Below the pieces are notes generated by a model. It searched no databases, was not told where the DNA came from, and was given only the letters and a program-made list of their open reading frames with translations. Shown here in pieces: positions 9,964-12,573 of a DNA stretch of 64,000 nt (positions within the stretch are counted from its first letter, which is position 1; each line of letters opens with the position of its first letter). The translations under genes and the position numbers were made by a program. Origin of the DNA: Lodderomyces elongisporus (Eukaryota; Ascomycota; Pichiomycetes; Serinales; Debaryomycetaceae); NCBI RefSeq assembly GCF_030384665.1, contig NC_083673.1, positions 629,501 to 693,500 on the forward strand, given 5' to 3'.

Positions 9964-9968
9964 CAACA

Positions 9969-10393
9969 TGTTGAAGTTGGATAATCCTAGCATTCATATT
10001 AAGTTGTTTCTTGTTACACAAATCGTTGTCTTTCATATATTCTAAATCGTTGACTACTTATTCTCTAATTTACATTTCTCAATTCCTAGAACTAATGGGA
10101 TATTCCTTCTCCTTTTATATTCTTCTTGCTATACCATTAATCCCATTAGTTCTGTTAATCCTTCCTATTATATCTTACTAGTCTTATTAGCATCAACTAG
10201 ACTCTTGTCCTAATTAACTTTTGTCGATCTTCTCATTCAGCTTCTGATTGGTCAGTGTTGGTCGTGTGTATACCAAAGTGATTAAGGCTTACTCTTGGCA
10301 ACCCATCGACCTTCCTTTGGGTTGCACTTCTGACTTCAATATATTCTTGGCAACTCATCGACCTTCCTTTGGGTTGCACTTCTGACTTCAACA
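9969..10393 (-). repeat. Full-length LTR (3' LTR of the copia element)
   Basis: Read on the minus strand, it begins TGTTGAAG and ends CTTCAACA, a perfect 8-bp terminal inverted repeat with the canonical TG...CA. It sits immediately after a polypurine tract, so it is a true 3' LTR. Near its 5' end there are two 47-bp direct repeats (10293-10339 and 10345-10391). A TATAAAAG box lies at 10112-10119 (minus), in the loop of a perfect 13-bp inverted repeat (10088-10100 and 10141-10153). Confidence 0.9.
10293..10391 (-). repeat. Two 47-bp tandem direct repeats in LTR U3
   Basis: Copies at 10293-10339 and 10345-10391 differ by one base (CCCATCG against CTCATCG) and are separated by 5 bp. They lie at the start of U3 and are candidates for upstream activating elements of the element's promoter. 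Confidence 0.85.
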
Positions 10394-10405
10394 CCCTCTC
10401 TTAAG
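10394..10405 (-). other. Polypurine tract (plus-strand primer)
   Basis: Minus-strand sequence ending in GAGAGGG directly abuts the LTR start TGTTGAAG, the arrangement required for second-strand priming in LTR retrotransposons. It confirms pol orientation and the identity of the left LTR as the 3' LTR. Confidence 0.75.
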
Positions 10406-10447
10406 CCTAAATCACTTAATCTTCTTTCTCTCCTACACACCTTGCCC

Positions 10448-12287
10448 TTAACTTCTCAAATTGTGGTTTTGGTAATATATAGTGAACATATCCGCTATCT
10501 GAAGTTTCGTGGGTAAGTATTCAACTAATAGGGATCCTTCTTCAACCTTTTCTCTTATGAAGTGGAGTCTTACATCAATGTGTTTAGTTCGATGGTGGTA
10601 CACAGGATGTATAGCATGCTTAATAGCACTTTGATTATCTTCATACAACTTAATACTAGTCATATCCAACTGAAATTCTTTGAAAACCTGCCTCAACCAT
10701 TCAGCTTCCTTTGCATCATCACACAATGACATAAACTCAGCTTCCGTCGTACTTAACGCAATTGTCGCCTGTTTCTTGGATCTCCAAGTAATTGGACCAT
10801 TAGCATATTTGAATACCAATCCAGAGGTTGACTTTCTCGACAATTTGTAATTGGCCCAATCAGCATCACAATATCCTTCTACTTTTGATCCTTCCTCATA
10901 TTGATAGGTAATTCCAAAATTCTCACTGCCCTTCAAATATCTCAATACCCTCTTTGCTGCTTTCCAGTGAAGTTCCTTTGGCTCTTTCAAGTATCTGGAT
11001 AGCACACCAACTATATGTGAGATATCAAATCGAACTGTATTTGCTGCAAACAACAATTTTCCAACTAGACTTCGGTAGTTCGATAAGTCTGTTAGCAACT
11101 TGTGATTCTTTTCATCTAATGTTAAATCTTGACTTACCATTGATGGTGTTTTCTCAGGTCTGCATTCCTTCATGTTATATTCTTTCACCATTGTCTCAAT
11201 ATAGTCCCTTAAAGTAAGTCCAATCTTGAAATCATCACTTTGTTTGATATTTAAACCTAAGAATTTACTGACCTTTCCAAGATCCTTCATTTTAAATTCT
11301 TTCAATAAATTTTTCTTCAATATTGTGACCGACTCATCAGTGGTTCCTGCAATAAGAATATCATCAACATAAAGTGCAACAATTAACATTGAATGATCAT
11401 CTTCCTTGAAATATAAACAGTTTTCCGCTCTGTTTCTAATGAATCCTAAATTTCTCAAAACTTTATCAACTCGTTGGTTCCATGCTAACGGAGCTTGCTT
11501 TAAACCATATAGGGATTTGTTTAGTTTGCATACCAAGTCTGAACCTTTTGAAATCTCATATCCTTCGGGTTGTTGCATATAAATTTCCTCATCCAAAGTC
11601 GCATTAAGAAAAGCAGTGGTTACATCCATCTGATGTAAAAACCATTTTCTTTTGAGCAGCAATCGCCATCATAATCCTTAATGACTCATACCTAATTACC
11701 GGAGCAAAGGTTTCCTCATAGTCTATTCCTTTAACTTGACTGAAGCCTCTGGCCACCAACCTTGCTTTGAACCGTCCATCCTTTTTGATTGTGAAGACCC
11801 ATCTACACGTGATCGCTTTCCTTCCTTTTGGTAATCGTACTAAGCTAAACGTCTGGTTCTCTGCATGTGCACGCAATTCCTCATTAATGGATTCCTTCCA
11901 TCGATTAGCATCTTTCGAATTCATTGCTTGTTTTAAAGTCTTTGGGACATCTTCCGTTATCATTTTCTCATTTTCTGGCGCAATAGAACTACTGGCAACA
12001 TAGTTTACTGCATTCAGCTTTGCCATCTGTTGATCAACCAGTTTAGATTCACCATCACTGCCATCATCTAAATCATTGTCCCTCTCTTCATCTGAATCCA
12101 CTGACATACTCGAGTTGTCATCAACAATTCGAGAAATATCCATTCTTCTATCACGCAGATGATGTTCCATAGCATTTTCCCTCTCTGAAGATAAACTGGG
12201 TGGTAAATTGTGATCTCCTATATATTTGTCGTTAGTACGTGGGATCGGCGTCGAATTTCTAGTACGTTTATATCTTGAAGGTGTCAT
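10448..12287 (-). pseudogene. Truncated, frameshifted copia pol (reverse transcriptase and RNase H)
   Basis: Two overlapping minus-strand frames (12287-11604 and 11662-10448) together form one copia-type (RVT_2) reverse transcriptase and RNase H. RT motifs include WVFTIKKDG, KARLVARGFSQ, DYEETFAPV, QMDVTTAFLN and the catalytic LYVDDILIAG. RNase H motifs include ALSTTEAEFMSL, YEDNQSAIKHA and RTKHIDVRLHFIREKV. The 5' part starts inside the acidic linker between integrase and RT, so gag, protease and integrase are absent. The frame break is best explained by one extra base in the A5 run at 11637-11641: with four bases the frame would continue without interruption into LHQMDVTT. The extreme C-terminus also looks altered after ADMFT, where most relatives continue KPL. 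It cannot encode an autonomous element. Confidence 0.9.
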
Positions 12288-12300
12288 TCTGGAATTTTCA

Positions 12301-12568
12301 AATGAGAAATCGACAAAAGTTAATTAAGACAAGAGTCTAGTTGATGCTAATAAGACTAGTAAGATATAATAGGAAGGATTAACAGAACTAATGGGATTAA
12401 TGGTATAGCAAGAAGAATATAAAAGGAGAAGGAATATCCCATTAGTTCTAGGAATTGAGAAATGTAAATTAGAGAATAAGTAGTCAACGATTTAGAATAT
12501 ATGAAAGACAACGATTTGTGTAACAAGAAACAACTTAATATGAATGCTAGGATTATCCAACTTCAACA
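12301..12568 (+). repeat. Truncated LTR in inverted orientation
   Basis: This is the 3' 268 bp of the same LTR, on the plus strand, ending CTTCAACA just before the right target duplication. It lacks the first ~157 bp, including both 47-bp repeats, but keeps the TATAAAAG (12418-12425) and the 13-bp inverted-repeat arms. Its promoter, if active, would fire toward AZF1. Confidence 0.9.
12418..12425 (+). promoter_or_regulatory. LTR TATA box directed toward AZF1
   Basis: TATAAAAG lies in the truncated right LTR, reading rightward. The equivalent box in the left LTR (10112-10119) reads leftward, so both LTR promoters point out of the element. Confidence 0.5.
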
Positions 12569-12573
12569 CAACA

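What the first reader, a model, noticed from the sequence alone, without database searches (positions are those of the whole stretch)
9964..12573. Copia element with inverted LTRs integrated as one unit
The two LTR copies of this Ty1/copia insertion are in opposite orientation (9969-10393 minus, 12301-12568 plus), yet a single CAACA target duplication flanks the whole structure. Normal elements have direct LTRs. A later inversion would not easily leave both outer ends as LTR 3' termini (CTTCAACA) next to matching duplications. The simplest reading is that an aberrant cDNA, formed by template switching, self-priming or intramolecular strand transfer, carried U5-type ends on both sides and was accepted by integrase. 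Only one substitution and one indel separate the copies, so the event is young.
Basis: partly seen in the sequence, partly recalled or inferred. Interest (0 to 1): 0.78.

Follow-up and report, generated by a model that had tools for sequence, protein, structure and literature searches.

The report
Copia insert with inverted LTRs
A broken Ty1/copia jumping-gene copy in the yeast Lodderomyces elongisporus carries the same end at both edges, pointing opposite ways, which most likely means that a miscopied fold-back DNA was accepted by the normal insertion machinery.

Summary
A copia fragment (9969-12568) has a full antisense LTR on the left and the last 260 nt of the LTR in sense on the right (12309-12568; 259/260 identical). 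Both outer edges are exact LTR 3' (U5) termini, flanked by CAACA. The genome is very probably the HiFi assembly of Lodderomyces elongisporus NRRL YB-4239. A full-length relative there has direct LTRs and a 5-bp duplication (TACAC). I read it as a cDNA that switched strands during reverse transcription (minus-strand snap-back, or a switch onto a sister minus strand) and was integrated by two U5 ends (0.66). Not excluded: two cDNAs co-integrated then end-joined, or a double template switch inside an integrated copy. No empty site was available. Two other copia loci (L021, L025) also carry inverted LTR segments; L025, a mosaic, is flanked by CTCAC. Template-switched LTR elements with duplications are known; I did not meet the U5/U5 inverted form in eight searches of one open-access library, whose hits I mostly saw as listings.

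The parts
9964..9968 (.). left CAACA, presumed 5-bp target-site duplication
   Evidence: sequence; chance of a matching 5-mer pair 0.0016-0.0027
9969..10393 (-). complete LTR (425 nt), antisense; U5 terminus at the outer edge, U3 start at 10393
   Evidence: 98% to both LTRs of L019
10394..10404 (-). presumed polypurine tract (TTAAGAGAGGG in element sense) abutting the LTR
   Evidence: sequence reading; same letters beside the 3' LTR of L019; name recalled, no test
10448..12287 (-). 3' part of copia pol (reverse transcriptase and, by position, RNase H side) in two ORFs, frame interrupted; the rest of the internal region, PBS included, is absent
   Evidence: RVT_2 E=1e-55 and 3.5e-25 in the two ORFs; internal part 10394-12312 has 37 differences in 1920 columns to L019:2314-4233, of an internal region reaching 6954 in L019
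12301..12317 (.). joint between antisense pol and sense LTR; crossover within ATCG 12309-12312, inside ~17 nt of imperfect homology
   Evidence: three-way comparison; only 12/13 match among 1,907,148 position pairs
12309..12568 (+). last 260 nt of the LTR, sense; U5 terminus at the outer edge
   Evidence: 259/260 to 9969-10228
12418..12426 (+). TATAAAAGG, TATA-like box; suggests that the right arm begins in U3, upstream of the R start
   Evidence: function inferred
12569..12573 (.). right CAACA, presumed target-site duplication

Best explanation
One aberrant cDNA, made inside a copia virus-like particle, was integrated as a unit. Shown: two U5 termini outward, a 5-bp direct repeat, one joint at the best available internal/LTR match. 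Inferred: minus-strand synthesis began normally (U5', R', strand transfer, U3', PPT', RNase H, RT). In pol its 3' end left the RNA and annealed by 12 of 13 nt to an antisense LTR strand, either its own 5' part (snap-back) or a sister minus strand. It then copied that strand to its 5' end, which is by definition the U5 terminus. The template had to be a post-transfer minus strand if, as the TATA-like box suggests, the copied arm reaches into U3. A second strand was then made, perhaps primed by another minus-strand strong-stop DNA on the new R-U5 end. Integrase used the two U5 ends, whose outer 9 nt equal those of the U3 end, and left the usual 5-bp duplication. The product lacks the PBS and most of the internal region and cannot act alone; both LTRs would read outward.
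For: Both outer edges are exact U5 termini next to CAACA/CAACA. The one normal relative has a 5-bp duplication too (L019 TACAC). Arms 259/260 identical; over the 260 nt the right arm shares 5 of the left arm's 6 differences from L019's 3' LTR, so both arms come from one source lineage. The joint sits at the only 12/13-with-one-bulge match among 1,907,148 internal x LTR position pairs, with no exact 12-mer anywhere; shuffled LTRs hold 1.18 such matches on average (at least one in 289 of 500), so the match existing is ordinary, but the break falling on it is not. By gapped local score it ties for second in the list. For the other direction of synthesis the joint offers only 8 of 9 nt with 4 perfect terminal nt, which 170 pairs reach; this favours growth from pol into LTR. 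Inverted LTR segments recur in two more copia loci of this genome (L021, L025). The assembly is from HiFi reads (PMC10586162 passages).
Against: No empty site was seen. Homology at the joint fits end-joining or single-strand annealing equally well. The left duplication with its neighbours (CTTCAACA, 9961-9968) equals the LTR's last 8 nt, an unexplained coincidence (CTTCAACA occurs 9 times on the + strand of the 64 kb). The source copy was not found in this genome: L019 differs by about 2%. How the second strand was primed is not shown by anything here. L025's repeated parts differ unequally (11/1107 against 15/229, Fisher p=3e-6, counts derived from the percentages), so that locus may have arisen in several steps.
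Confidence: 0.66

Rival explanations
1. Two cDNA molecules were integrated together: integrase inserted the U5 end of each at the two sides of one target (giving CAACA twice), and the cell then fused their free inner ends by microhomology-mediated end joining or annealing at the 17-nt imperfect repeat.
For: Gives the same ends, duplication and homologous joint. Would explain the one difference between arms as two separate reverse-transcription products. Pairing of two donor molecules by integrases in vitro is known (recalled).
Against: Needs integration plus an independent repair event. The joint ranks better as a primer end growing from pol into LTR than the reverse, a direction that end joining does not need.
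Confidence: 0.15
2. A normal minus-oriented copy was altered after integration: DNA replication switched template at the 9 nt shared by the LTR termini and again at the 17-nt imperfect repeat, or one LTR flipped in place and an internal deletion followed.
For: The LTR termini share TGTTGAAGT, so a switch there would keep the outer edge and the duplication. The second joint has homology.
Against: Needs two joints or two events; the cDNA route needs one joint, and its exact U5 end is automatic.
Confidence: 0.13
3. Two independent insertions in opposite orientation were fused by a deletion; the matching CAACA is chance.
For: CAACA is common in this window (155 on the + strand). Neighbouring LTRs in inverted orientation are known from Ty-rich sites of Saccharomyces cerevisiae (PMC3554576, PMC3536649, PMC5065131; passages).
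Against: Chance of matching 5-mers 0.0016-0.0027. The arms share variants against L019. The LTR search found no solo LTR of this family: 6 matches, in three loci, a lower bound by the tool's own note.
Confidence: 0.04
4. Assembly or library artefact (fold-back read).
For: Inverted repeats are a known artefact type (recalled).
Against: HiFi reads of mean 13.3 kb, those over 20 kb assembled, eight gapless contigs matching the karyotype (PMC10586162 passages). The arms are not identical and the flanks differ. No reads were seen here.
Confidence: 0.02

Closest known systems
Template-switching LTR retrotransposon complexes of cereals (Sabot & Schulman 2007, PMC1950507; abstract and passages seen)
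   Same: rearranged copia element explained by abnormal template switching, flanked by a 5-bp duplication, with highly similar outer LTRs
   Different: there, three LTRs and two cores, with no mention of inversion (the word-start 'invert' has 0 hits in that paper); here two inverted LTR ends, one core fragment, U5 at both edges
Autointegration circles with inverted LTRs (2-LTR inverted circles; PMC4751563 passages, citing Shoemaker 1980 and Garfinkel 2006, which I saw only as citations)
   Same: inverted LTRs made from one cDNA
   Different: those are circles formed by a cDNA integrating into itself; here a linear chromosomal insert with two U5 ends outward and a target duplication
DIRS-1-type retrotransposons (PMC5633606 passages)
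   Same: inverted LTRs around a reverse transcriptase
   Different: DIRS-1 carries a tyrosine recombinase; this is a copia fragment (PF07727) with a 5-bp repeat on its flanks, and its normal relative has direct LTRs
Inverted LTR pairs at Ty-rich sites of Saccharomyces cerevisiae (PMC3554576, PMC3536649, PMC5065131; passages)
   Same: LTRs in opposite orientation close together
   Different: the passages describe pairs among several LTRs at a site or breakpoint, not one insert with a matching duplication
Rearranged or fold-back retroviral DNAs (recalled, no paper read)
   Same: strand-switch products of reverse transcription

Membership tests
Ty1/copia LTR retrotransposon | copia-type reverse transcriptase (PF07727, RVT_2) | tested here: met
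   189.5 and 89.5 bits against a cut-off of 31.6
Ty1/copia LTR retrotransposon | LTR ends TG...CA and 5-bp target duplication | tested here: met
   TGTTGAAG...CTTCAACA and CAACA twice in the window; L019 TACAC twice
Ty1/copia LTR retrotransposon | two direct LTRs | tested here: not met
   inverted in the window copy; direct in L019. The window copy is filed as a defective derivative of a copia family, not as an intact copia element
Ty1/copia LTR retrotransposon | integrase upstream of reverse transcriptase | not tested
   that part is absent from the truncated window copy; L019 was not scanned for it
Template-switching complex (Sabot & Schulman) | flanking 5-bp duplication and highly similar outer LTRs | tested here: met
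   CAACA twice; 259/260
Template-switching complex (Sabot & Schulman) | third, internal LTR between two complete cores | tested here: not met
   two LTR matches in the insert
DIRS-1-type element | inverted LTRs | tested here: met
DIRS-1-type element | tyrosine recombinase instead of an integrase | tested here: inconclusive
   copia-type reverse transcriptase and a 5-bp flanking repeat speak against it; no recombinase scan of L019 was made
Autointegration inverted circle | closed extrachromosomal circle | tested here: not met
   linear chromosomal insert with U5 termini against flanking CAACA

The most novel reading that the evidence does not exclude
In this yeast, copia particles repeatedly make fold-back cDNAs with inverted LTR ends by primer-type switching at short imperfect matches, and integrase accepts them, even with two U5 ends; the window copy is a young U5/U5 product, and L021 and L025 are mirror or mosaic products of the same habit.
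Probability: 0.3. Interest if true: 0.62.

Novelty: new variant of a known kind. Interest (0 to 1): 0.47.

Why it matters
If right, the insert is a natural record that a copia integrase completes a two-ended insertion with two U5 ends in a living cell, and that minus-strand snap-back DNA can become a valid integration substrate. It also shows how an LTR element can turn into an inverted repeat with two outward-reading LTRs, a source of palindromes that annotation based on direct LTRs would be expected to miss (inference).

Tried and rejected
Empty-site search: not possible. I found no other Lodderomyces assembly among the collections on hand, and the genome search states that this genome has no relatives here. 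Species naming through the neighbouring gene gave nothing; the reverse transcriptase search did.

Considered and rejected: a pre-existing sense LTR as target (no LTR sequence left of 9961); a simple inversion of a normal copy (the outer right edge would be a U3 terminus); counting the C1:1733-1736 kb and C8:122-124 kb palindromes as proof of the same mechanism (older, 86.7% and 79.4% identical, LTRs not identified there).

L025 as a second clean proof: not accepted as such. Its outer LTRs are in normal direct orientation, so its CTCAC repeat suggests one insertion but not that the inner mosaic predates it, and its repeats differ unequally.

Literature: eight of the ten searches were aimed at inverted or template-switched LTR elements. 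Three returned no paper; the others listed 25 of 30, 2 of 2, 6 of 6, 5 of 5 and 20 of 50 papers. No title or abstract start in these lists announced an integrated copia with inverted LTRs and a duplication. Of the six papers holding 'inverted LTR' I looked at passages of five and not at PMC6031699. Searches were about the species.

Limits on the locus count: the ten copia loci come from a PF07727 search that scores only best candidates, so remnants without reverse transcriptase are missed; Ty3/gypsy loci were not examined for inverted repeats. The two priming directions were judged by different yardsticks (12 of 13 with a bulge against 8 of 9 with a mismatch, each being what the joint offers in that direction).

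Full report
What is there. The window holds a 2600-bp copia fragment at 9969-12568. Its left edge is a complete 425-nt LTR in antisense (9969-10393), followed inward by a presumed polypurine tract and the 3' part of pol in antisense; two ORFs match the copia reverse transcriptase family PF07727. Its right edge is the last 260 nt of the same LTR in sense (12309-12568). The arms are 259 of 260 identical (one search prints a rounded 100%). Both outer edges are the LTR's 3' (U5) terminus, and CAACA stands on either side. Two arbitrary 5-mers from the flanks match with a probability of 0.0016 to 0.0027.

The genome. The window lies in an assembly of 16,086,460 bases in 8 contigs. A protein named by NCBI as Lodderomyces elongisporus NRRL YB-4239 is 505 of 505 residues identical to a copia reverse transcriptase in locus L024 of this assembly. 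The published HiFi assembly of that strain has a largest scaffold of 3,597,007 and an N50 of 2,328,861 bases, the lengths of C1 and C3 here, and a 24-bp telomeric repeat that I can read at the end of C4 (PMC10586162 passages). Assembly error is therefore unlikely, though I saw no reads.

Relatives. A whole-genome search with the LTR gave six matches, in three loci: the window, L019 and L021 (the tool calls such counts lower bounds). L019 (C3:1848391-1853878) has direct LTRs that differ by one indel and the duplication TACAC. The window's internal part shows 37 differences in 1920 columns to L019, and its left LTR 9 and 8 in 425 to L019's 3' and 5' LTR, so L019 is not its direct source. Over the 260-nt arm the right copy shares 5 of the left arm's 6 differences from L019's 3' LTR; the sixth (10210) is on the left only.

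The joint. L019 gives the uninterrupted internal sequence and thus the crossover. Pol reads AATGAGAA-ATCG-TCAAA, the LTR AATGAGAAG-ATCG-ACAAA, and the window follows pol up to ATCG and LTR after it. Among 1,907,148 pairs of internal and LTR positions there is one 12-of-13 match with a single bulge and no exact 12-mer, and that one is the joint (repeated with another script). Dinucleotide shuffles of the LTR hold 1.18 such matches on average, with at least one in 289 of 500. The match is therefore ordinary, and only the break falling on it is remarkable. By gapped local score the alignment ties for second in the list. In the opposite direction of synthesis the joint offers 8 of 9 nt with 4 perfect terminal nt, which 170 pairs reach. 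This favours a 3' end growing out of pol into the LTR, though annealing of broken ends would use the same homology.

Mechanism. Read as a minus strand, the + strand of the window begins with U5'R'U3', runs through PPT' and pol', and then turns into LTR sense up to the U5 terminus. A minus strand that snaps back onto its own 5' part, or onto a sister minus strand, and copies it to the end gives this structure with one switch, and the exact U5 end is automatic. The arm starts upstream of a TATA-like box (12418), hence probably in U3, so the template should have been a minus strand that had passed the first strand transfer, not strong-stop DNA alone. How the second strand was primed is inferred only. 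The LTR termini share their outer 9 nt, so two U5 ends should suit the integrase.

Rivals. Two cDNAs co-integrated by their U5 ends and then end-joined fit the data nearly as well. So, less simply, do two replication template switches in an already integrated copy, one at the shared 9 nt and one at the joint. Two insertions fused by deletion need a chance duplication; inverted LTR pairs from a Ty-rich context are known in Saccharomyces cerevisiae (passages). No allele without the insert was available, which is the main gap.

Other copia loci. The PF07727 search gave 19 matches, which I group into ten loci. In six of ten I found an inverted repeat of 79 bp or more: the window, L021, L024, L025, C1:1733-1736 kb (86.7% identical) and C8:122-124 kb (79.4%, the reverse transcriptase fragment only at its edge). 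In four of ten (L019, L020, L022, L023) I found none of 40 bp or more. Controls: the window outside the insert (about 61 kb) held none of 60 bp or more at 85% identity or more, and the two stretches flanking L025 (L029 and L030, 13.5 kb) none of 60 bp or more. Ty3/gypsy loci were not examined, so this is no measure of copia against gypsy. L021, near the telomere of C4, has sense U5 plus PBS joined to antisense pol and an antisense 5' LTR on the other side; its outer ends are truncated. L025 is a 7.5-kb mosaic of another copia family (1039-8562) flanked by CTCAC, with a 922-bp inverted repeat at 97.5% and several joints at short homology, one at 19 nt; one joint (PPT to gag) shows no clear homology. 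Its outer LTRs are in normal direct order and its repeats differ unequally, so it may have been built in steps.

Comparison with print. Template-switched copia complexes with 5-bp duplications are described (PMC1950507, abstract and passages), inverted-LTR circles by autointegration are described (PMC4751563 passages), and DIRS-1 elements have inverted LTRs by design (PMC5633606 passages). An integrated copia with inverted LTRs, U5 at both edges and a duplication was announced in none of the titles and abstract starts listed by eight searches, two of which listed only part of their hits; many older and subscription papers are outside that library. I rate it a new variant of a known kind.

Noticed in passing
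L025:1034-8567 (C4:1704001-1713500): 7.5-kb copia mosaic flanked by CTCAC on both sides: antisense LTRs outside, one sense LTR inside, a 922-bp inverted repeat, several joints at short homology (one at 19 nt, GTGATGTGACTTTGATTCA).
   Followed up: partly
L021:3457-5812 (C4, near the telomere): Older relative of the window element with sense U5 plus PBS fused to antisense pol: an inverted LTR in the mirror arrangement, outer ends truncated.
   Followed up: partly
L024:4243-4320 and 4686-4764: 79-bp inverted repeat (98.7%) inside another copia element whose two LTR copies are direct and identical over 202 bp.
   Followed up: partly
C1:1733665-1735785 (L037, L049) and C8:121932-124047 (L047, L050): Old near-palindromes (86.7% and 79.4%) containing or touching copia reverse transcriptase remnants; the C1 one lies near the middle of the chromosome. 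Origin not settled; PMC7263194 (passages) says that the proposed centromeres of this species have no inverted repeats.
   Followed up: partly
window 11604-11662; L019, L020 and L021 at the same place in pol: The reverse transcriptase reading frame is split at the same place in four of four copies of this family (paired PF07727 matches starting at 72 and ending at 75 or 77): either a shared ancestral lesion or a programmed frame change.
   Followed up: no
window 9961-9976: Left flank CTTCAACA plus LTR start TGTTGAAG make a perfect 16-bp palindrome; the target sequence happens to equal the LTR's last 8 nt. Unexplained.
   Followed up: partly
whole genome: 18 of 36 RVT_1 matches have the same score and an open frame of 1529 aa: a recently spread family of another reverse transcriptase type, in contrast to the few copia copies.
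   Followed up: no
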